Assembly (NCBI GenBank): GCA_025936755.1 | Contig: JAICSS010000024.1 | Coordinates: 1 to 36,651, forward strand | DNA length: 36,651 nt | Source: Solirubrobacterales bacterium | GTDB taxonomy: Bacteria > Actinomycetota > Thermoleophilia > Solirubrobacterales > 70-9 | Direction of reading: 5' to 3' | Part shown: positions 11,763-22,772 of the stretch, piece after piece | How positions within the stretch are numbered: position 1 is the first letter of the stretch | Layout: every line of letters begins with the position of its first letter | Program-made: the position numbers and the translations under genes | The notes under the pieces: generated by a model | What the model was told of the DNA's origin: nothing | The model's input: only the letters and a program-made list of their open reading frames with translations | Database searches by the model: none

Positions 11763-13823
11763 GTGTTCTTGAGAAGCTCCTGCCCGGTGCTCCAGCGATC
11801 CCTCCAGATCCGCTCTCCCGCTCTCGGCGCCCTGATCGCGGCGGCCACGGTCCTCTCAGCCTGTCCCGGGACGGCCGCGTCGCCGTTCCCCGGCCCGCAC
11901 CACCGGGCAGGAGCGGCGCAGCCGGGAAGGTGCCTCGGCCGGCCCGCCACGATCGTCGGCCACGGAACCATTCACGGCACCGCCCACGCCGACGTGATCG
12001 TCGGAGGCCCTGGTGAGGACCACATCTTCGGCGGGGGCGGCAACGACCGGATCTGCGCGGGCGGCGGCGACGACGCGATCGAAGGCGGGACCGGCAGCGA
12101 CCGGATCGACTCGGGAGCGGGGGACGACGAAGCGATCGGCGGCAACGGCAGCGACCTCGTGCTGGCCGGCCCCGGGACCGACACCGTCTTCGGCGAACGC
12201 GGCAACGACCGTCTGTACGGCGGGCCGGGGGAGGACGACTACCTCAACTCGGGTCTGGGCGACGACACCGCCGGCGGCGGGCCCGGCAACGGCGACCACG
12301 TGATCGGCGGCGTCGGCAACGACCGCCTCTCCGGCGGCCCGGGCGACGGCGACGCGATCGAGGGCGATCTCGGCGCCGACACGATCGACGGCGGTCGCGG
12401 CGCCCACGACATCGCTTCCTATGCGCTCGCCGGCCAGAGCGCGATCTATCCCGGCGGCATCGGCGTGGACGTCGACCTCGCCGCCGGCACCGGCAGCGGC
12501 GACGGCGAAGACACCTTGAGCGGGATCGAGGACGTGGCCGGCACGCCCTTCGCCGACACGATCGCCGGCGACGCCGGACCGAACGATCTCTACGGCGGGG
12601 GCGGGAGCGACGAACTGATCGGCGCCGGCGCCGCCGACGCGGCGTTCGGCGGCACCGGGCTCGACCTCTGCCGGGGGGCGGCGAGCGCCGAATCGTGCGA
12701 GCTGCGCGGTGGGCGCGCGGACAACGCCGCCGACGAAGCCGCCTTGATCGCGTTCGAAGAACACCCGCCACCGCCGCCGACGTTCGAGGTCGACCTGCCC
12801 GGCGGCCCCGGCGCCGGTGAGCTCACCGGCGCCGTCGCACACGGCGTCGATCTCGTCCAGAAGCAGGGCATCCAGGTGCGCGCCGCCTTCCTCGGCGAAG
12901 CCTGGGTCGTCACCGAGCAGGGGTTGCCGTTGGCGGTCGGCGAAGGCTGCGCGCTGCTCGGCCCGGATACCGCGAGCTGTCCGATCGCGACGACGGCGAC
13001 CGGGCTTCTCCTCGACGGCGGCGAAGGCGCCGACCTGCTCGCGGTCGAGCCCTCGGTCCCCGCCACCGTCTCCGCCCGCCTCGTCGGCGGCAACGGCGCC
13101 GACGTCCTGATCGGGGGCGCCGGGGACGACAGCCTCAACGGCAGCTCCGGGCCGGGCAACGGCGATCGGCTCTACGGAGGGCCGGGCGACGACGCCCTCG
13201 CCGAAGGCTCGGTGCTCGACGGTGGAGGCGGCTCGGACCTGCTGATCGCGGCTCCCTGCGGCGAGACGACCGACGGCGGCCCGGGCATCGACAGCGTCTC
13301 CTTCGCCCGCTCCACCCACGAGGGCGTCGAGGCGACGCTCGGCGGCAGCGCGGGCATCGCCCCGTACGGCGGCTTCCCCGGCGGCTGTCCGACCGAGCAC
13401 GGCGGCCCGCCGCCGAGCCAGATCTCGAGCTCGGTCGAGCGCATCGAGGGCAGCCCCAACGGCGACGTCCTCAGCGGCGACGGCGGACCCAACGTCATCC
13501 TCGGCCGCGGCGGCGGCGATGAGATCCATGGCGCCGGCGGCGACGACTTCCTGGTCGGCGGGCGAGGGAGCGACGCCCTCTATGGCGAAGCCGGGGCGGA
13601 TCGCCTCTACGCCCGCGACGGCCGCCGCGACGAGGCGATCGACTGCGGGTCGGCCGGCCGCGACGGGTCGGCCGGGCGCGACGCCTCCGCCATCCGCGGC
13701 GACGTCGCCATCGCCGATCCGGGCGACCCGCCGGCGTGGGACTGCCGCGAAGCCGGCTCGGGCGTCCGGTCCCCCCACGGGACCGCTGAACTTCCGCCGC
13801 GACCGCCGCGTAGATCGCCATGA
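11763..13823 (+). CDS. secreted RTX-type calcium-binding repeat protein
   Basis: A 686-residue exported protein. The GTG start has AAAGGGG about ten bases upstream. The N-terminus carries a hydrophobic signal segment with a lipobox-like LSAC (C34). Residues about 65-300 and 430-630 contain many GGxGxDxxx nonapeptides (for example GGGGNDRIC, GGVGNDRLSG, GGAGDDSLNG, GGRGSDALYG), which bind calcium and fold as parallel beta-rolls. The central part (about 340-430) lacks repeats. No protease or adhesin catalytic motif is visible, so it is probably a structural or surface protein. Its stop overlaps the ATG of the next gene, which may couple it to the biosynthetic cluster. Confidence 0.85.
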   Translation: MFLRSSCPVLQRSLQIRSPALGALIAAATVLSACPGTAASPFPGPHHRAGAAQPGRCLGRPATIVGHGTIHGTAHADVIVGGPGEDHIFGGGGNDRICAGGGDDAIEGGTGSDRIDSGAGDDEAIGGNGSDLVLAGPGTDTVFGERGNDRLYGGPGEDDYLNSGLGDDTAGGGPGNGDHVIGGVGNDRLSGGPGDGDAIEGDLGADTIDGGRGAHDIASYALAGQSAIYPGGIGVDVDLAAGTGSGDGEDTLSGIEDVAGTPFADTIAGDAGPNDLYGGGGSDELIGAGAADAAFGGTGLDLCRGAASAESCELRGGRADNAADEAALIAFEEHPPPPPTFEVDLPGGPGAGELTGAVAHGVDLVQKQGIQVRAAFLGEAWVVTEQGLPLAVGEGCALLGPDTASCPIATTATGLLLDGGEGADLLAVEPSVPATVSARLVGGNGADVLIGGAGDDSLNGSSGPGNGDRLYGGPGDDALAEGSVLDGGGGSDLLIAAPCGETTDGGPGIDSVSFARSTHEGVEATLGGSAGIAPYGGFPGGCPTEHGGPPPSQISSSVERIEGSPNGDVLSGDGGPNVILGRGGGDEIHGAGGDDFLVGGRGSDALYGEAGADRLYARDGRRDEAIDCGSAGRDGSAGRDASAIRGDVAIADPGDPPAWDCREAGSGVRSPHGTAELPPRPPRRSP

Positions 13824-14833
13824 TGGGAAGGCTCCGAGAAGACGTACCGGCTGTCGGTCCTGACGCGCACGCGTTCTGGCTGCGCTCACCCGGCCGCGGC
13901 GAGATCCGGCCCGCCGCGCTGCGGGACCCGGGACCCGACGAGGTGCTGGTCCGCACCGTCTGCTCCGGCGTCAGCCGGGGCACCGAGACGCTGGTATTCC
14001 GGGGCGCCGTGCCGCCGGACCAGCACGAGGCGATGCGGGCGCCTTTCCAGGAGGGGGACTTCCCCGGCCCCGTCAAGTACGGCTACCTCAGCGTCGGGAC
14101 GGTTGAGCGCGGACCCCCCGGTCTCCGCGGCCGCACGGTCTTCTGCCTCTACCCGCACCAGAGCGCCTACGTCGTGCCCGCCGGCGCGGTGACCGTCGTC
14201 CCCGAGGGCGTGCCCGCGACCCGCGCCGTCCTCGCCGGCACGGTCGAGACCGCGGTCAACGCCCTGTGGGACGCGGCGCCGCTGATCGGCGACCGGGTCG
14301 CCGTGGTCGGCGCCGGGATGGTCGGCTGCTGCGCGGCCCGCCTGCTGAACGCCTTTCCGGCGACGCAGGTCACGCTCGTGGACGTCGACGGCGGTCGGGC
14401 CGAGGTCGCCGCCGCGCTCGGTGTCGACTTCGCGCTGCCCGACGATGCCCACGGCGATCGCGACCTGGTCGTGCACGCCAGTGCCACCTCCGCGGGGCTG
14501 CGGCGATCGCTCGACCTGCTCGCGCCCGAGAGCACCGTCATCGACCTCAGCTGGTACGGCGACGAGGAGGTCCGGCTGCCGCTCGGCGGCGCCTTCCACT
14601 CGGGCCGCCTCGCCATCCGCTCCAGCCAGGTCGGCACGGTCTCGCCGGCCCGCGCCGGGCGCCGCACGGCCGCCGAGCGCATGGCGCTCGCGCTCGAGTT
14701 GCTGCGCGACCCCGCCTTCGACGCCTTGCTCACCGGGCAGTCCCGCTTTCGCGAGCTGCCCGACGTGATGGCCCGGCTCGCCGCCGGGCGCCTGCCGGGG
14801 CTTTGCCAGACCATCACCTACGAGGAGGAGTGA
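13820..14833 (+). CDS. MDR-family (zinc-type alcohol) dehydrogenase
   Basis: A 337-residue medium-chain dehydrogenase/reductase. The N-terminal domain has VCSGVSRGTETLVFRG, typical of a small MDR subgroup. The Rossmann domain has VAVVGAGMVGCCAARLL and the acidic strand end TLVDVDGGRAE, indicating NAD(P) use. Several normal zinc-site residues are not obvious, so zinc-dependence is uncertain. It opens a plus-strand operon with a PTPS-fold protein (3 bp gap), a GT4 glycosyltransferase and a methyltransferase. A redox step on a polyol, sugar or pterin side chain would fit the context but is inferred. Two ATG codons in tandem (13820, 13823) are possible starts. Confidence 0.8.
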   Translation: MMGRLREDVPAVGPDAHAFWLRSPGRGEIRPAALRDPGPDEVLVRTVCSGVSRGTETLVFRGAVPPDQHEAMRAPFQEGDFPGPVKYGYLSVGTVERGPPGLRGRTVFCLYPHQSAYVVPAGAVTVVPEGVPATRAVLAGTVETAVNALWDAAPLIGDRVAVVGAGMVGCCAARLLNAFPATQVTLVDVDGGRAEVAAALGVDFALPDDAHGDRDLVVHASATSAGLRRSLDLLAPESTVIDLSWYGDEEVRLPLGGAFHSGRLAIRSSQVGTVSPARAGRRTAAERMALALELLRDPAFDALLTGQSRFRELPDVMARLAAGRLPGLCQTITYEEE

Positions 14834-14836
14834 CCC

Positions 14837-15235
14837 GTGTTCAGCGTGACGGTCCGCGACCACATGATGATCGCCCACAGCCTGCGCGGCCAGGCTTTCG
14901 GGCCCGCCCAGGGCTTGCACGGCGCCACCTACGTGGTCGACGCCACGTTCCGGCGCCCCGACCTCGACGCCGACGGCGTCGTGATCGACATCGGCCTGGC
15001 GTCCGGGCACCTGCGCGCGGTGCTGGGCGAGCTCACCTACCGCAATCTCGACGACGAGCCCAGCCTGGCGGAGGTGAACACGACGACGGAGGAGCTCGCG
15101 CGGGTGATCGCCGACCGACTCGCCGAGCGCGTGCTCGCCGGCGGCGCGGACGAGGCCGCCCGGGAGGGGGGCGCCATCCTGATCACGCTGCACGAGTCCC
15201 ACATCGCCTGGGCGAGCTACGAACGGCCGTTGTGA
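14837..15235 (+). CDS. PTPS/QueD-fold protein with altered active site
   Basis: A 132-residue protein of the 6-pyruvoyl-tetrahydropterin / 6-carboxytetrahydropterin synthase fold with a GTG start. The core segments are [41 protein letters not shown] and [12 protein letters not shown]. Canonical QueD binds zinc with three histidines (H...HGH) and uses a cysteine just before HGH. Here H14 and H28 remain, the third ligand position is alanine (HGA) and the catalytic cysteine position is alanine or nearby non-cysteine. It is therefore unlikely to make 7-deazaguanine precursors in the usual way. The same HGA form is, as I recall, shared by homologues in similar clusters of other actinobacteria. Its stop overlaps the GTG of the next gene. 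Confidence 0.85.
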
Positions 15236-16278
15236 GGACCGTGCACTTCGTCGTGCCCGACGGCATCGCCGATCCGGTGCGGCCGAGCGGCGGCAACACC
15301 TACGACCGGCATCTCTCCCGGGAGCTCGGCCCGCACGGCTGGACGGTGCGCGAGCGCGCCGTCGAGGGCTTCTGGGACCGTCCCGACGCGGCGTCGTTCG
15401 CCGCCCTCGAAAGGACCCTGCGGCAGATCCCCGACGACGCCGTCGTGCTGCTCGACGGGCTGATCGCCTCGACCGCGCCGGAGGTCCTGGTGCCGCAGGC
15501 AAGCCGGCTGCGCCTGATCCCGCTCGTGCACATGCCGCTCGGCCACCGCCCGCGCGAGGACGCGGCGCGGGCGCGGGAGGGCGCGGTCCTCGCCGCCGCC
15601 ACCGCCACCGTGACGACGAGCGAGTGGAGCCGCCGCCGGCTGGTGGAGCTCTACGGCCTGCCCGCGGACGGCGTCCGCGTCGCCGAGCCGGGCGTCGAGA
15701 CCGCCGACCCGGCCCGAGGGACCGCGGCCGGCGAAGCGCTGCTCTGCGTCGGCGCGGTCAGCTTCGAGAAGGGCCACGACATCCTGATCGAGGCGCTCGC
15801 CTCGATCTCGGCGCTTTCCTGGCGCTGCACCTGCGTGGGGAGCGCGGGCCGCGACCCGGCGTTCGCAGCGGGGCTCGGCCGGCGCCTGCCCGGCGAGCGG
15901 GTGTCCTTTCCGGGGCCGCGGACCGGAGCCGATCTAAACCGCAGCTACGCCTCCGCGGACCTCCTGGTGGTGGCGTCGCGTGCCGAGACCTACGGCATGG
16001 TCGTGACCGAGGCGCTGGCGCGTGGCCTCCCGGTCGTCGCCGCCGAGGTCGGAGGGGTGGTGGAGGCTCTCGGCGAGGGCGCGGCCGGGACCCGGCCGGG
16101 GTTGCTGGTCGCGCCGGAGGACCCCGCCGCGCTCGCCGGAGCGCTGGCCTCCTGGCTCGGCGACGCCGAGCTGAGGGCGCGCCTGCGTCGGGCCGCCGGC
16201 GAGCGACGCGAGTCGCTCCCCCGCTGGCCGGCCACGGCGGCGGTCGTCGCCGGGGTCCTGGCCGAGGCGTCGCCATGA
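15232..16278 (+). CDS. GT4-family glycosyltransferase
   Basis: A 348-residue GT-B fold glycosyltransferase of family 4. The GTG at 15232 overlaps the preceding TGA and leads directly into [20 protein letters not shown], the glycine-rich acceptor loop. The donor-binding C-terminal domain shows [20 protein letters not shown] and the E-x7-E motif in [20 protein letters not shown]. It is a retaining transferase using a nucleotide sugar. The acceptor is probably the product of the cluster's pterin/pyrimidine enzymes or a lipid intermediate, which is inference. No membrane helix is present. Confidence 0.88.
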
Positions 16279-17099: not shown

Positions 17100-17117
17100 G
17101 GAGGGTCTGACCTCAGG
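17095..17117. terminator. candidate bidirectional terminator between convergent genes
   Basis: CCTGAGG (17095-17101) and CCTCAGG (17111-17117) form a 7-bp perfect inverted repeat with a 9-nt loop. It spans the stop codons of both converging operons. No T-run follows on either strand, so its strength as an intrinsic terminator is doubtful. Confidence 0.4.
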
Positions 17118-17757
17118 CCGCCGGGGGCGGGACGTCGAGCGTGTGGCCGCGCCGCACCTTCGCCGCCAGATAGCGGGCGTTCGCGGCGGACAGGTGCACC
17201 CCCGTCGGCACCCGCTCGGTCACGGTCACCCCGAAGCGGCCGAGCTGGCGGGCCTTGTCGGGGTTGTTGGAGAGCAGGGCGACCCGCGGGGCTCCGAGGG
17301 CGCGCAGCATCTGGGCGGCGACGAGGTAGCTGCGCTCGTCCTCGTGGTGGCCCAGCGCGAGGTTGGCCTCGTAGGTGTCCATTCCCTCGTCCTGCAGCGC
17401 GTAGGCGTCGAGCTTGGGGTAGAGGCCGATGCCGCGTCCCTCCTGGCGCAGGTACAGCAGGTAGCCACCGGAGTCGGCGATCAGCTCGACGGCCTCGCGC
17501 AGCTGCGCGCCGCAGTCGCATCGCTGACTGCCGAACACGTCTCCGGTGAGGCACTCGCTGTGCGGCCGGACCAGCGGCTCGAGCTGGTTCTCGGTGAAGC
17601 CGAGCGGGCCGGTCCGGTCACCGAGGCCGAAGGCGACGTGCTCGCGGCCGTCGATCAGGCCGTCGAAGCTGAACACCCGGGCGAAGCTGGTGTTGCCGTC
17701 GGAGAAGCGCACGGGCATCGAGACCTGGGTACGGATCGTCGCCGTGGGCAGCGGCAT
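17113..17757 (-). CDS. ribA: GTP cyclohydrolase II
   Basis: A 214-residue enzyme that opens GTP to 2,5-diamino-6-ribosylamino-pyrimidinone 5'-phosphate plus formate and pyrophosphate, the entry to riboflavin synthesis. The zinc site is complete: C69, C80 and C82 in HSECLTGDVFGSQRCDCG. LRQEGRGIGL carries the catalytic arginine, and the tyrosine of AYALQ (Y119), linked to complete turnover rather than stopping at the formylated intermediate, is present. There is no DHBP synthase (RibB) domain fused to it and no ribE or ribH nearby, so this is probably a cluster-dedicated paralogue. The ATG overlaps the stop of the reductase gene upstream on the same strand. Confidence 0.93.
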   Translation of the reverse strand: MPLPTATIRTQVSMPVRFSDGNTSFARVFSFDGLIDGREHVAFGLGDRTGPLGFTENQLEPLVRPHSECLTGDVFGSQRCDCGAQLREAVELIADSGGYLLYLRQEGRGIGLYPKLDAYALQDEGMDTYEANLALGHHEDERSYLVAAQMLRALGAPRVALLSNNPDKARQLGRFGVTVTERVPTGVHLSAANARYLAAKVRRGHTLDVPPPAA

Positions 17758-18449
17758 CAGTCGGTCTCGAAGCGGGCCGAGAGGGCGTAGCGCAACAGCA
17801 CCACGTCGCCGATCTGGCGGACCTCCGCCAGCCGCGCGCGGCGGTCGGGATTCCACGGGAAACGTCCGTCGCTGACGAAGCGCGTGGCCCGGGAGTCGCC
17901 GACGAAGAAGGGCGCGACGACCAGCTGCAGCTCGTCGACGAGATCGTCGGTCAGGAACTGGGTGTGGACCCTGCCGCCGCCCTCGACCATCAGGCGCCGC
18001 ACGCCGCGCTCGCCGAGGTCCTCGGTGAGGCGGCTCATCCTCACCCGCCGGCCGCCGTCGACGACGGTCGCCACCGACCCCAGGCGCGAGCGGGCGTCGG
18101 CCACGCGCGGGCTCGTGCAGTAGACGACCTTCTCGATGTCGCCGGCGGTGAAGAAGTCGGCCTGGGCGTCGAGCTCCATCCGTTCGGTCACGGTGACCTT
18201 CATCGGCGACGGCGGAAGCCCGCGGGCCCTGCGCTCCTCGCGGCGGTCGTGCGAGCGCACCAGCAACCGCGGGTTGTCCATGCGGACGGTGGTAGCGCCG
18301 ACCAGGATCGCGTCGGAGGAGGCGCGCACCTCGTCGACCCGGTCGAAGTCGGCGTCGTTGGAGAGCTCGAGGCGCCGTGGCGCCGCGCTGCCGAGATAGC
18401 CGTCGATCGAGAGGGCGCAGCTCAACAGGATGTAGGGGCGGTCGGGCAT
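17757..18449 (-). CDS. RibD C-terminal-type reductase (DHFR fold)
   Basis: A 230-residue stand-alone reductase of the RibD_C/DHFR fold, predicted to reduce the ribosylamino side chain of the GTP cyclohydrolase II product with NADPH. Family marks are ILLSCALSIDGYLGS, SDAILVGATTVRMDNPRLLV and LMVEGGGRVHTQFLTDDLVD. The deaminase half of a normal bacterial RibD is absent, so the pathway may use the reductase-first order or a product that stays aminated. It is translationally coupled to ribA downstream by an ATGA overlap and lies 11 bp from the phosphotransferase/sulfatase fusion gene. Confidence 0.87.
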   Translation of the reverse strand: MPDRPYILLSCALSIDGYLGSAAPRRLELSNDADFDRVDEVRASSDAILVGATTVRMDNPRLLVRSHDRREERRARGLPPSPMKVTVTERMELDAQADFFTAGDIEKVVYCTSPRVADARSRLGSVATVVDGGRRVRMSRLTEDLGERGVRRLMVEGGGRVHTQFLTDDLVDELQLVVAPFFVGDSRATRFVSDGRFPWNPDRRARLAEVRQIGDVVLLRYALSARFETD

Positions 18450-18460
18450 TCCGCTCGCCG

Positions 18461-20734
18461 CTACCGGGCCGCCGGCTTGGAGTCGAAGGCTTCCAGGAAC
18501 CGGTCGCGGAAGGAGCTCATCGGCCAGACCGGGGCGTCCTTGCGGGGTTTCAGGCCGGGATTCCAGCCCCAGCCTTCGATCCGCCTCAACACGCTCGGGT
18601 CGTGGGCGATGATCGAGATCGGCACCTGGTGGCCGGCCCGTTCACCGGTGACGGGGTTCCGCGGTTGGTGGTCGCCGAGCTCGATCACCACCAGGTTCTT
18701 CCTGCCATAGCGCTGAATGAACCCGGTCAGGGTGTTGATCGTGTAGACGATCGACCTGCCGTAGTTCGCCTGGACGCGCGGCGCGTCGCCCCAGTACGAG
18801 AGGAACGCCCCGCCTTCGTAGTGATTCGGGAGGCGGTCGTAGACCGAGCCGTCGCCGACCTCGTTCCAGCCGATTTCCGCCGGGATCCGGTTCCAGGGCT
18901 GGTGGCTCGAGACCGTGTCGACCTCGGCGAAGAGCGGCCGGCGGTGCGTCTTCCCGAGCTCGAGCCGCTCCAGCGCCGAGTAGATGTACTGGTCGGGCAT
19001 CGCCGCGTAGGAGAAGGTCGGGCCGCGATAGCCGACCTGGTTGCGGTCGTAGATCTCGTCCCAGTGGTAGAAGGCCTTCCCTTCCGGCCAGGGACGGTCG
19101 TTCGAGGGCACGTCGTCGACGGTCCGCCAGCCGGCGCGGTTGAACGCCGAGGCAAGCGTGAGGCGCCGTTCCGGCAGCAGCTGGGCGTAGCGGCGTAGGT
19201 TGTGGACCCAGAGCCCCGAATTCAGGGTCGAGTGCGCCAGCCAGCTGCCGCCGCCGAAGGTCGGTGAGATCAGGAAGCCGCTGCGGGAGTGGAACCCGGC
19301 GCTCGCCAGTCGCCTGTTCCCCGCGGCCAGCGCTTCGTCGACTTCGGGCGCGAACGAGGATTCTTCGATCGCCACCCGGCCGAAGGACTCGGCGAACACG
19401 AGCAGGACGTCCTTGCCGCGCAGGGCCCGCAGCAGCGACCCGGTCGGAATGCCGCGGTACGGGTCGTGCTTGATCGCGGCGGCGAAGACGCCGACGTCGT
19501 TCACTTCGGCTCGCAACGTCTGTGCCTCGTCGACGAGCACGCCGGCGGAGATGGCGGAGGCGATCGGCGTGGGGGAGGCGAACTGCGCGCCGAGCACGGC
19601 GCAAGCCGCCCCGACCGCGCCGAGGCCCGCGACGGTCCGGAGCGCAAAGCGGCGATTGTCGGCCGCGACCCGCGTCACCCGCAGCATCGCCAGGGGCAGG
19701 AGGACGATCGCGGCCGCCACGCCGACCACGGCGCCTATCTCGATCAGCCGCGCCTGCGACGCGCCGTTCTCCAGGCGCAGGGTTTCGAGGGCGTTCCCGA
19801 TCTGCCCGATGTCGCCGAGGGGTTCGAACGGACGATCGAACAACGAGAAGATCTGGTAGTCGACCACCTTCAGGACGACCACCAGCGCCAGGGCCAGCCC
19901 GGCGAGCACCGCCAGGATCCGCCGGCCGGCGGCCGGCAGGAAGACCGCCAGCGCGACCAGGACGAGACCCTCGGTCGGGATCCTCAGGAACGCGGCCGAG
20001 CCGAAACGGCCCGGCTGGTCGGGAGCGACCAGCGCGGCCCACACGAGCGCGATGGACGAGGCCGTCAGCGTGAGGGCGACGACCGCCCGGGGCTCGCCGC
20101 GTCCGCGCCCGGCCCCCGCGGGCCGGTCATCCGCGAGCGCCGGGCCCGCGCCGGCCCGGGATCGGGAAGCCTCTCGGCGCCTGCGGCTCGAGAGCCACCA
20201 CACGTCCCGGCCGAACGACTCCGCGAGCAGCACGAGCGCGACCCCGAGGGCGGCCTTCGCCAGGCCCGACGGCAGCACCTGCGCGGCCGCGACCGCGAGG
20301 ACGATCCCCTGTATCGCGCACACGACCTTGCGCCAATGGCGCGGCGGCAGCGGCGCGCGCAGCCACGGAAGCACGTATCCGGCCGCGAGGAAGGCGTAGC
20401 GGGCCGCGCCGATCGCGAGCACCCAGGCGCCGAACGAGCGGGCGACGTACACGCTCAGGACCGCGATCAGGAACGCGTCGACCTCCGCATCCAGGCGCTC
20501 GCCCCGCGCCGACGCCGTGCCGGTGCGCCGTGCGACCTGCCCGTCGACCGCGTCGAGGACGAGCGCGGCCGCCGCGAGCGACACCAGCAGGCCGACCGGC
20601 GCGGGCCCGGTGAACGAGCCCGCGACCAGACCCGCGACCCCGGCGGAGAGCGCGGCGCGGGCGAGCGTCACCCAGTCGGCCGGACCGAGGCGGTCGCTGT
20701 CCCAGTAGGAGCGTCGCGAGGGGTCGACTGCCAT
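18461..20734 (-). CDS. CDP-alcohol phosphotransferase fused to sulfatase-fold enzyme
   Basis: A 757-residue membrane protein with two catalytic units. Residues about 15-185 hold a CDP-alcohol phosphatidyltransferase domain with the full metal motif D61, D64, D82 and D86 in DAVDGQVARR...GERLDAEVD. A charged linker (185-215) leads to a second membrane region (about 217-385). Residues 435-750 form an alkaline-phosphatase/sulfatase-superfamily domain: metal-binding E449 in LLVFAESFGR, a nucleophile candidate Ser/Thr in FGGGSWLAHSTL (493-504), and metal-binding D688/H689 in GDHQP. LtaS and EptA phosphotransferases use this fold outside the membrane. The fusion suggests assembly and transfer of a phospho-alcohol headgroup. 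It begins the minus-strand half of the cluster. Confidence 0.85.
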   Translation of the reverse strand: MAVDPSRRSYWDSDRLGPADWVTLARAALSAGVAGLVAGSFTGPAPVGLLVSLAAAALVLDAVDGQVARRTGTASARGERLDAEVDAFLIAVLSVYVARSFGAWVLAIGAARYAFLAAGYVLPWLRAPLPPRHWRKVVCAIQGIVLAVAAAQVLPSGLAKAALGVALVLLAESFGRDVWWLSSRRRREASRSRAGAGPALADDRPAGAGRGRGEPRAVVALTLTASSIALVWAALVAPDQPGRFGSAAFLRIPTEGLVLVALAVFLPAAGRRILAVLAGLALALVVVLKVVDYQIFSLFDRPFEPLGDIGQIGNALETLRLENGASQARLIEIGAVVGVAAAIVLLPLAMLRVTRVAADNRRFALRTVAGLGAVGAACAVLGAQFASPTPIASAISAGVLVDEAQTLRAEVNDVGVFAAAIKHDPYRGIPTGSLLRALRGKDVLLVFAESFGRVAIEESSFAPEVDEALAAGNRRLASAGFHSRSGFLISPTFGGGSWLAHSTLNSGLWVHNLRRYAQLLPERRLTLASAFNRAGWRTVDDVPSNDRPWPEGKAFYHWDEIYDRNQVGYRGPTFSYAAMPDQYIYSALERLELGKTHRRPLFAEVDTVSSHQPWNRIPAEIGWNEVGDGSVYDRLPNHYEGGAFLSYWGDAPRVQANYGRSIVYTINTLTGFIQRYGRKNLVVIELGDHQPRNPVTGERAGHQVPISIIAHDPSVLRRIEGWGWNPGLKPRKDAPVWPMSSFRDRFLEAFDSKPAAR

Positions 20735-20775
20735 GGCTTAGGGCCCCGGCCGCGGGCCGATGCTTTGCGGCGGAC

Positions 20776-20781
20776 TAGCAT
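20776..20781 (+). promoter_or_regulatory. candidate -10 box TAGCAT, leaderless start
   Basis: TAGCAT fits TANNNT and ends 7 bp before the GTG at 20789. No Shine-Dalgarno sequence precedes that GTG. It lies in the 54-bp gap between divergent genes, where a promoter is expected. Confidence 0.35.
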
Positions 20782-20788
20782 CCTCGGC

Positions 20789-21553
20789 GTGAAGCAGGAC
20801 GAGCGCGCTCCCTTCGTGCGTGCCCTCCAACGGGCCCGGGAAGGGGCGTATGCGCCCGGCGAGTTCGTCGAACAGGAGAGCTTCATGGGGGCCGCCGAAG
20901 TCCGGGCGCTGGCGCGTCACGCGGGCATCGGCCCCGGCGTCCCGGTGCTCGACCTCTGCTGCGGCATCGGGGGCCCGGGGCGCTTCATCGCCCGGGAGAC
21001 CGGCTGCGACTACCTCGGGGTCGACTACAGCGCGGGCGCCGTCGAGATCGCGCGCCGGCGCGCCGGCGAGCTTCCGTGCCGCTTCGAGGTGGCCCGGATC
21101 CCGCCGCTTCCCCCCGGCCCGTTCGAGGTGGTGCTCCTGCTCGAGACGATGCTGGCATTCGCCGAGAAGGAGCCGTTGCTCCGGCAGATCTCCCGCGCGC
21201 TCACGATCGGCGGGCGGTTCGCCTGCACCTTCGAGGGAGGCCCGCCCCTCACCGAGGCGGAGCGAGAGCGGATGCCCGACGCGGACACCGTCTGGCTCGT
21301 CCCGATCGAGGAGATGCTCGCTTCCCTGGACCGGGTCGGGCTGGTCGTCCGTAGGCAGGAAGACCGCACTCGGTCGCACGCCGCCACGGCCGAAGCGCTG
21401 ACCGAGGCGTTCGCCGCCGACGCCGCCGCCATCGCCGCGGAGATCGGAGACGGGGCGCTGGAGGAGCTGCTGGCCGCCCACAGGCTGTGGAGCGACTGGC
21501 TGCGGACGGGACGCGTGCGCAAGGTCGCCCTGGTCGCGGAGAGGACCCGCTGA
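20789..21553 (+). CDS. class I SAM-dependent methyltransferase (DMT/SDMT-like)
   Basis: A 254-residue methyltransferase starting at a GTG. Motif I is VLDLCCGIGGPGRFIARETG, followed by YLGVDYSAGAVEIARRR, a pattern seen in sarcosine/dimethylglycine-type N-methyltransferases. The middle EVVLLLETMLAFAEKEPLLR and ALTIGGRFACTFEGG complete the fold. It is transcribed alone between the divergent fusion gene and a converging methyltransferase operon. The substrate is unknown; an amino group on the cluster product is one possibility. Confidence 0.82.
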   Translation: MKQDERAPFVRALQRAREGAYAPGEFVEQESFMGAAEVRALARHAGIGPGVPVLDLCCGIGGPGRFIARETGCDYLGVDYSAGAVEIARRRAGELPCRFEVARIPPLPPGPFEVVLLLETMLAFAEKEPLLRQISRALTIGGRFACTFEGGPPLTEAERERMPDADTVWLVPIEEMLASLDRVGLVVRRQEDRTRSHAATAEALTEAFAADAAAIAAEIGDGALEELLAAHRLWSDWLRTGRVRKVALVAERTR

Positions 21554-21561
21554 CCCCGGCG

Positions 21562-22251
21562 TCATCTCGACGCCCCGCTCGGAGCGGCCGGCGACCCGGC
21601 CGCGAGGAACGCGGTCCCGAAGCACAACTCGCTCCAGAGGAGATCGCCCAGCGCCTCCTGCATGGATGCGCGAACCCCCTCCCAGGGGCGGCGCGCGAGC
21701 CACTCGTCGATCGAGCCGAACGGGCGCCCGAGCGCGGTTCCGAGCCGTGCCAGCATCGGATGCGTGTCGTCAGGGGCCTTGAGATCGAGCACGACGCAGC
21801 GCCCGTCGCGAGCGAGCGCTGCGGCGCCACGGGCGATGACGTCCCCGCAGTCGGGCAGGTGCGAGAGGGCGTAGGTCGAGAGGACCGCGTCGATCCCGGC
21901 CGGGAAGGCGTAGTCGGCCGCGTCGGCCTGTACGAGGCTGACGTTGCTCCAGCCGTTGCGCTCTATCCGGCGCTGGGCCTGGGCGAGCATCGCGTCGGTG
22001 AGATCGACGCCGACGATCCGGCCGCCAGGGCCGATCGCCCGCTCGATCAGCGGGAAGTTCTGACCGGTGCCGCAGGCGACGTCGACGACGGTGGCGCCGG
22101 GGCGAAGCCGGAGTGCTTGCACGGCGCGGCGGCGCTGGGCCTGCTGGGGGTATCCGGGCACGGGGTAGAGCCGGGAGACGACGTCGTAGTGCTTGGCCTT
22201 CCTGCGGTAGGTCGCGATCAGGCGCTCCTGCGTGGCGTCGAGCTGGCTCAT
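21562..22251 (-). CDS. UbiE-like SAM-dependent methyltransferase
   Basis: A 229-residue methyltransferase. KAKHYDVVSRLYPVPGYPQQ at the N-terminus resembles lipid-modifying UbiE/PmtA/BtaB types. Motif I is VVDVACGTGQNFPLIERAIG, then GVDLTDAMLAQAQRRI. STYALSHLPDCGDVIARG and DGRCVVLDLKAP are the later motifs. The Y-x-x-V/L-S-R-L-Y element hints at a membrane lipid or quinone substrate. Its ATG overlaps the stop of the SRPBCC gene, so the three genes 23749-21562 are one coupled unit. Confidence 0.83.
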   Translation of the reverse strand: MSQLDATQERLIATYRRKAKHYDVVSRLYPVPGYPQQAQRRRAVQALRLRPGATVVDVACGTGQNFPLIERAIGPGGRIVGVDLTDAMLAQAQRRIERNGWSNVSLVQADAADYAFPAGIDAVLSTYALSHLPDCGDVIARGAAALARDGRCVVLDLKAPDDTHPMLARLGTALGRPFGSIDEWLARRPWEGVRASMQEALGDLLWSELCFGTAFLAAGSPAAPSGASR

Positions 22252-22772
22252 GGCGGGCGCTCTTCGAGCGGGCGCTCCGTGGAGACTCCACCGGGACTCG
22301 CGTCCCTACGGGGGATGGACTCGACCGCAGCCTTGATCGCGACCATCTCGATGTCCATCACACGCTGGATCCGGTCCCGGAAGGCACGCCTGGGAAGTGC
22401 GCGCATGACATTCCTGAAGTCGACCTCGACCCACATCTCGGTCTCGGTCCGCCCACCGTCGATCGGTGCGAGCTCCATTCCCCAGCGCGCCGCCGAGGTG
22501 CCCAGCGGCCCGGCGAAGGCCAGGCTGCGGGGCGCCTCCACCGCGGTCACGTGCTGGGCTCGGTGGCGAGTGGCTCCGAACATCAACTTCGCTCGCTGCT
22601 CTACCCGCGCGCCCGGCGCCAGCGGACCCCCGCCGGCGACCCAGCCTGCCTGGACGGTCGGCGCCCACTGCGGCCAGCGTTCGACGTCGCAGATGTAGTC
22701 CCACACCTCGGGGACGCTGCGGCCGATCGCCAGTCGGCTCTCGCACCTGATCGTCTTCGCGCCGGCGCTCAT
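22248..22772 (-). CDS. SRPBCC-fold lipid/ligand-binding protein
   Basis: A 174-residue protein of the START/Bet v 1-like SRPBCC superfamily. RLAIGRSVPEVWDYICDVER begins the fold and WPQWAPTVQAGW is the typical tryptophan-rich element; RHRAQHVTAVEAPRSLAFAG and GGRTETEMWVEVDF form the strands, with a long C-terminal helix. Such proteins bind hydrophobic ligands or act as polyketide cyclases. Both ends overlap neighbours by four bases, so it is coupled with the methyltransferase and the membrane protein. A carrier for a hydrophobic intermediate is the simplest reading. Confidence 0.82.
   Translation of the reverse strand: MSAGAKTIRCESRLAIGRSVPEVWDYICDVERWPQWAPTVQAGWVAGGGPLAPGARVEQRAKLMFGATRHRAQHVTAVEAPRSLAFAGPLGTSAARWGMELAPIDGGRTETEMWVEVDFRNVMRALPRRAFRDRIQRVMDIEMVAIKAAVESIPRRDASPGGVSTERPLEERPP

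What the first reader, a model, noticed from the sequence alone, without database searches (positions are those of the whole stretch)
14837..15235. PTPS-fold protein lacking the catalytic cysteine and one zinc histidine
The HGH motif is HGA and no cysteine precedes it, while the rest of the fold is well conserved. Together with the cluster context this argues for a new reaction or a substrate-binding role rather than decay.
Basis: partly seen in the sequence, partly recalled or inferred. Interest (0 to 1): 0.62.

Follow-up and report, generated by a model that had tools for sequence, protein, structure and literature searches.

The report
Rewired PTPS-IV protein in pterin-like cluster
This gene encodes a pterin-enzyme-fold protein that has lost the usual catalytic residues, but so has its whole family: a relative's crystal structure was released in 2008, and the protein belongs to a widely transferred gene cluster of unknown product that starts from GTP.

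Summary
ORF 14837-15235(+) is a PTPS-fold protein with HGA for HGH and no cysteine at all; the Asp/His of the catalytic triad are gone too (T67/Y68). It is not decay and not a lone oddity. It is 67% identical to SCO6650 (PDB 3D7J, released 2008) and carries the FGPAQ signature of the published subfamily PTPS-IV. In 91 family members HGA, A24, H14, H28 and E120 are invariant, and dN/dS is 0.18-0.42. The gene lies between a zinc-less dehydrogenase and a GT4 glycosyltransferase in 66 of 66 loci with enough flank, usually with GTP cyclohydrolase II and a methyltransferase, and often a RibD-C reductase. New here: two sister groups in related clusters also lack Cys but keep the zinc histidines, so Cys loss probably came first and loss of the zinc ligand second. 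Three different GTP-opening modules feed the cluster: RibA-Tyr, RibA-Met plus creatininase, and archaeal GCH III. Queuosine, folate and F420 roles are disfavoured. Best reading: a dedicated enzyme or binding protein for a GTP-derived 2-amino-4-oxopyrimidine; I propose ring closure after dehydrogenase oxidation, untested. New member of a known kind; product unknown.

The parts
13820..14833 (+). MDR-type dehydrogenase annotated 'zinc-binding alcohol dehydrogenase' in relatives; the zinc ligands are absent (Cys47->Ser, His67->Tyr against human ADH3)
   Evidence: Pfam ADH_zinc_N weak; weak BchC similarity; adjacent upstream of the PTPS gene in 66/66 loci; ligands absent in the 8 diverse cluster members aligned
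14837..15235 (+). PTPS-IV protein (SCO6650 type), HGA motif, no Cys, FGPAQ signature
15232..16278 (+). GT4-family glycosyltransferase, overlaps the PTPS stop codon
16275..17099 (+). class I SAM-dependent methyltransferase
   Evidence: present in 60/66 loci
17113..17757 (-). second GTP cyclohydrolase II (likely start at 17757, TGATG overlap with the reductase stop); keeps the E. coli Tyr105 equivalent; the longest ORF extends to 17856
17757..18449 (-). RibD-C type reductase, closest to 2,5-diamino-6-ribosylaminopyrimidinone 5'-phosphate reductase, no deaminase domain
   Evidence: Pfam RibD_C; TIGR01508 141 bits, below its cut-off of 186; PDB relatives
18461..20734 (-). CDP-alcohol phosphatidyltransferase with the D-x2-DG-x2-AR...G-x3-D-x3-D motif, fused to a sulfatase/LtaS-like C-terminal part (the latter by eye)
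   Evidence: Pfam CDP-OH_P_transf; CDP gene in 62/66 loci; sequence; a separate sulfatase gene in L091/L092
22769..23815 (-). LPG_synthase_TM (flippase-like) membrane protein; homologues in 55/66 cluster loci
   Evidence: Pfam PF03706

Best explanation
The gene encodes a PTPS-IV T-fold protein dedicated to a horizontally spread biosynthetic pathway. Steps shown by gene content: a cluster-owned GTP cyclohydrolase II opens GTP, and a RibD-C reductase of the deaminase-free (archaeal/fungal) type goes with it, so the intermediate should keep its 2-amino-4-oxo pyrimidine ring. Inferred: the PTPS-IV protein holds that ring through the invariant Glu120 in the usual T-fold pocket, without a Cys nucleophile and, in this branch, without the canonical zinc site. 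My most likely reaction (about 25% on its own): the zinc-less dehydrogenase oxidises the 2'-hydroxyl of the ribityl chain, giving the same 1-deoxy-2-ulose that GTP cyclohydrolase I forms by Amadori rearrangement, and PTPS-IV assists closure of the 5-amino group onto that ketone to make a dihydroneopterin-phosphate-like pterin, which the methyltransferase, glycosyltransferase and membrane CDP-alcohol transferase then decorate. The confidence given is for the pathway assignment (dedicated enzyme or binding protein for a GTP-derived 2-amino-4-oxopyrimidine), not for that specific step.
For: HGA, A24, H14, H28, D51, E85 and E120 invariant in 91 sequences and dN/dS 0.18-0.42, so the altered site is maintained. 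ADH-PTPS-GT order in 66/66 loci with enough flank; methyltransferase 60, CDP transferase 62, GTP cyclohydrolase 58, LPG_TM 55, RibD 38. Three substitutable GTP-opening modules in clusters: RibA with Tyr105, RibA with Met105 plus creatininase, and GCH III in Haloarcula pelagica. The host keeps its own RibD and RibA-type genes on contig C8, so the cluster copies are extra. The reductase is closest to the diaminopyrimidinone reductase model. All no-Cys PTPS proteins form one group, 98/96 support even with motif columns removed, and all three of its subgroups sit beside the dehydrogenase, with RibD and/or a GTP cyclohydrolase in most members examined. The T-fold and QueD/PTPS as next neighbours were confirmed by structure.
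Against: No biochemistry; neither product nor substrate is known. RibD is missing from most Streptomyces clusters (30 creatininase loci with a cyclohydrolase, RibD found in 3), so the reductase step may be supplied elsewhere or not be universal. The two haloarchaeal clusters examined show no RibD hit by tblastn. The dehydrogenase regiochemistry and the ring closure are chemical inference only. The conserved membrane enzymes are not explained by a simple soluble pterin.
Confidence: 0.72

Rival explanations
1. PTPS-IV is a non-catalytic substrate carrier or scaffold that hands an unstable diaminopyrimidine between the dehydrogenase and the transferases.
For: Complete loss of the Cys/Asp/His triad (0/91 keep the His, 1/91 the Asp) and of one zinc ligand while the ring-binding Glu is invariant; always a direct neighbour of the dehydrogenase.
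Against: Further near-invariant polar residues (H9, S15, D35, R69, N70, D72, H122) beyond ring binding suggest active chemistry; two sister groups keep a complete His set.
Confidence: 0.25
2. PTPS-IV serves cofactor F420 synthesis, as the 2016 review states for the archaeal members (unpublished work).
For: Statement in PMC5041015; GTP cyclohydrolase plus reductase could make the F420 precursor; 8 of 9 genomes tested with the cluster have CofD.
Against: 68 of 149 class genomes have CofD over its cut-off but only 2 have a strong PTPS-IV match; two genomes with PTPS-IV have no cofD-grade match (G137, only E=3.6e-4; G512, none), though both may be incomplete; the cluster carries methyl-, glycosyl- and CDP-alcohol transferases that F420 does not need.
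Confidence: 0.05
3. It is a QueD (queuosine) or folate PTPS with a local mutation or a relaxed motif.
For: Automatic annotation calls relatives 6-carboxytetrahydropterin synthase; the same Pfam family.
Against: QueD model score 36.7 against a cut-off of 89.25; the motif is uniform in 91 sequences; only weak partial QueC-like matches in the host; the host has FolE2 and HPPK for folate; a well supported clade apart from all CxxxHGH proteins sampled.
Confidence: 0.02

Closest known systems
SCO6650 of Streptomyces coelicolor (PDB 3D7J, released 2008)
   Same: 67% identity over the full length; same HGA, FGPAQ, E120; AlphaFold model TM 0.92 to it. From memory, the 2008 structure paper reported no zinc, no triad, no PTPS activity, and a pocket still fit for a pterin-like ligand.
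   Different: Host lineage; in the window the GTP cyclohydrolase and reductase genes lie reversed after the methyltransferase, as in L019 and L024, and there is no creatininase.
PTPS-IV subfamily of COG0720 (FGPAQ signature)
   Same: Signature, and neighbourhood with PF00925 and PF01872, as published for network cluster 62 (561 sequences; PMC5445326)
   Different: The literature links archaeal PTPS-IV to F420 without published data (PMC5041015); the bacterial cluster here argues otherwise.
SCO6655-type GTP cyclohydrolase II (Spoonamore et al. 2006, Biochemistry 45:12144; not held, content from memory)
   Same: Streptomyces clusters of this family carry the Met-type enzyme reported to stop at the formamide stage
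   Different: The window copy keeps Tyr and lacks the creatininase; in 66 clusters Met and creatininase always go together (30/30) and Tyr never has it (36/36), but the tree counts only one or two independent switches.
QueD / PTPS-I and PTPS-II, III
   Same: T-fold, ring-binding Glu, first two zinc histidines
   Different: No Cys, no Asp/His pair, third zinc His replaced by Ala

Membership tests
PTPS-IV (COG0720 subfamily) | PTPS/T-fold domain | tested here: met
   Pfam PF01242 E=1.2e-22; model matches 3D7J, QueD, PTPS
PTPS-IV (COG0720 subfamily) | FGPAQ signature | tested here: met
   residues 21-25 of the window protein; 88 of 90 sequences scanned; signature from PMC5445326
PTPS-IV (COG0720 subfamily) | neighbourhood with GTP cyclohydrolase II and RibD-C | tested here: met
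   window genes at 17113-18449(-)
PTPS-IV (COG0720 subfamily) | role in F420 synthesis (as claimed for archaeal members) | tested here: inconclusive
   presence pattern argues against it but no biochemistry
PTPS-I / QueD | CxxxHGH motif | tested here: not met
   AQGLHGA, no Cys in the protein
PTPS-I / QueD | score over the NCBIfam QueD cut-off | tested here: not met
   36.7 bits against 89.25
PTPS-II | CxxxxxHGH motif and Asp/His triad partners | tested here: not met
PTPS-III | ExxHGH motif | tested here: not met
   Q25 at the Glu position, HGA
SCO6650 group | no bound zinc in the structure | not testable with these tools
   reported for SCO6650 from memory; the ligand set is the same in the window protein

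The most novel reading that the evidence does not exclude
The cluster is a GTP-cyclohydrolase-I-independent route to a pterin: GTP cyclohydrolase II opens GTP, RibD-C reduces C1', a zinc-less dehydrogenase oxidises C2', and a Cys-free, zinc-free T-fold protein closes the ring, after which the pterin is methylated, glycosylated and, through the CDP-alcohol transferase and flippase-like protein, placed in or across the membrane.
Probability: 0.18. Interest if true: 0.78.

Novelty: new member of a known kind. Interest (0 to 1): 0.42.

Why it matters
Function prediction pipelines name these proteins 6-carboxytetrahydropterin synthase, which the motifs contradict. The cluster is widespread (Actinomycetota, Alpha- and Gammaproteobacteria, plus a related haloarchaeal version), sits on plasmids in many hosts, and I found no described product. 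The inferred three-step history (normal motif, Cys lost, zinc ligand lost) inside related operons gives a ready series of natural variants to learn which T-fold chemistry needs zinc or a thiol.

Tried and rejected
Decay or local mutation: rejected. Queuosine: rejected. Folate bypass: the host lacks FolE (PF01227) but has FolE2 and HPPK, so the cluster is not needed for folate. Riboflavin: the host has another RibD and RibA-type copy on contig C8. F420: argued against by distribution. Creatininase-Met link: perfect in 66 clusters but only 1-2 independent events, so not a statistical proof. Phage origin: one weak partial match only. Original papers on SCO6650, SCO6655 and COG0720 were not held (the DOI and the PMID were tried from memory and may not be right); paper searches for the cluster gave no description of its product.

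Full report
What is there. The ORF at 14837-15235(+) encodes 132 residues with a Pfam PTPS domain (E=1.2e-22). Against E. coli QueD and human PTPS (sequences typed in from memory for the alignment) it keeps the first two zinc histidines (H14, H28) and the ring-binding glutamate (E120). The third zinc histidine is Ala30, the QueD cysteine position is Ala24, the PTPS-III glutamate position is Gln25, and the Asp-His pair of the triad is Thr67-Tyr68.

Not decay, and not alone. phmmer against solved structures returns 3D7J, SCO6650 of Streptomyces coelicolor, at E=7.5e-54 and 67% identity. An AlphaFold2 model from 27 aligned relatives (pLDDT 87) has 3D7J as best fold match (TM 0.92) and QueD and PTPS next. 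In 91 sequences (90 from the window and retrieved loci, plus SCO6650) HGA, A24, H14, H28, D51, E85 and E120 are invariant and the triad His never occurs. dN/dS against four relatives is 0.18-0.42 and GC3 is 0.97.

A described subfamily. Residues 21-25 read FGPAQ, the published signature of PTPS-IV, whose network cluster of 561 sequences neighbours PF00925 and PF01872 (PMC5445326). PMC5041015 says PTPS-IV serves archaeal F420, citing unpublished work. From memory, the 2008 structure paper on SCO6650 reported no zinc, no triad and no PTPS activity, and a 2006 paper reported that the GTP cyclohydrolase SCO6655 releases the formamide intermediate; neither paper was held, only the 2006 citation was seen.

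The cluster. In all 66 loci with enough flank the order is dehydrogenase, PTPS-IV, GT4 glycosyltransferase; a CDP-alcohol transferase is present in 62, a methyltransferase in 60, GTP cyclohydrolase II in 58, an LPG_TM membrane protein in 55, RibD-C in 38 and a creatininase in 30. These loci were found through the PTPS gene and are weighted towards Streptomyces and Micromonospora, and the 80 kept by the scan are the closest of 575 confirmed ones. The cluster also sits on plasmids of Rhizobium, Methylosinus, Thiodictyon and others. In the window's class only 2 of 149 genomes, the window's own included, have a strong match, which together with this spread suggests horizontal transfer. The window holds the dehydrogenase, PTPS-IV, GT4 and methyltransferase as an overlapping or nearly overlapping run, then GTP cyclohydrolase II, reductase and a fused CDP-alcohol transferase on the other strand. 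The dehydrogenase lacks the zinc ligands of human ADH3 in all eight diverse members aligned.

Pathway entry. The host has a second RibA-type and RibD gene pair on contig C8, so the cluster copies are extra. Clusters use one of three entry modules: RibA with the Tyr105 equivalent and no creatininase (36 of 36), RibA with Met and a creatininase (30 of 30), or GCH III in Haloarcula pelagica. Some clusters show no cyclohydrolase at all and may use the host's. Creatininase-family proteins include the archaeal FAPy deformylase (from memory), so all three modules could converge on the diaminopyrimidine. On a tree the Met-creatininase pairing amounts to one or two events, so it is suggestive only. The reductase is closest to the 2,5-diamino-6-ribosylaminopyrimidinone phosphate reductase model, though below its cut-off, and has no deaminase domain, which leaves the 2-amino group in place.

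How the odd motif arose. Lower-identity relatives retrieved from other genomes fall into three groups that lack the Cys: the HGA group of the window; a group in one other family of the phylum with FGPAxxxHGH and LHYRxL; and a group with EGPEGxxHxHxY, joined by haloarchaeal plasmid proteins (GPEGxxHSHxY). All members whose neighbourhood was read lie beside the dehydrogenase. The second group's operon is RibD, dehydrogenase, PTPS, GT4, methyltransferase (read directly in L116; homology hits for all but the methyltransferase in the others). The third has dehydrogenase, GTP cyclohydrolase II and RibD in bacteria. The maximum-likelihood tree separates all no-Cys proteins from the 19-21 CxxxHGH-type proteins sampled (99/97; 98/96 with motif columns removed), and the HGA and HGH-no-Cys groups are each one clade. 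The branching among the three no-Cys groups is unresolved. The simplest history is loss of Cys in the common ancestor and later loss of the third zinc ligand in the HGA branch; it rests on the root lying among the Cys proteins, which is likely but not proven.

What it is not. The QueD model scores 36.7 against a cut-off of 89.25, and the host shows only short, weak QueC-like matches. The host makes folate precursors with FolE2 and HPPK. CofD passes its cut-off in 68 of 149 class genomes while PTPS-IV is nearly absent there, and two PTPS-IV genomes lack a convincing cofD, so F420 is unlikely. In S. coelicolor expression data, SCO6655 is anticorrelated with predicted flux of its annotated riboflavin reaction (PMC2853524), and SCO6652, probably a cluster gene by its locus number, is among strongly changed genes in a comparison of mycelial stages (PMC3610822); both are weak hints.

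Mechanism. Shown: gene content, conservation, fold. Inferred: substrate is a GTP-derived 2-amino-4-oxopyrimidine held by E120. Proposed: dehydrogenase oxidation at C2' of the ribityl chain gives the ketone that GTP cyclohydrolase I reaches by Amadori rearrangement, and PTPS-IV assists ring closure, which needs neither thiol nor zinc. The membrane genes suggest that the product is lipid-linked or exported; this is not tested. Verdict: correct observation, known family, new member; the cluster and its unknown product are the interesting part.

Noticed in passing
window 18461-20734 (-): CDP-alcohol phosphatidyltransferase fused to a sulfatase/LtaS-like domain; in Rhizobium and Thiodictyon clusters a separate sulfatase-like gene is present (L091, L092).
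   Followed up: partly
L102 3373-7223 (Haloarcula pelagica plasmid): A haloarchaeal version of the cluster uses GTP cyclohydrolase III instead of RibA and has no glycosyltransferase between PTPS and methyltransferase.
   Followed up: partly
L110, L111, L112, L116: In the genomes with the HGH-no-Cys form, a FolB (dihydroneopterin aldolase) gene lies divergently next to the cluster reductase.
   Followed up: partly
L045, L046: Sciscionella and Actinomadura clusters have the creatininase but no GTP cyclohydrolase II hit in the retrieved stretch.
   Followed up: no
window 11763-13823 (+): Large protein with repeated GGxGxD-type calcium-binding (RTX-like) repeats directly upstream of the dehydrogenase; not part of the conserved cluster.
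   Followed up: no
window 20738-22769: Two further SAM methyltransferase-like ORFs and an SRPBCC-like ORF between the fused transferase and the LPG_TM gene; not tested for cluster membership.
   Followed up: no
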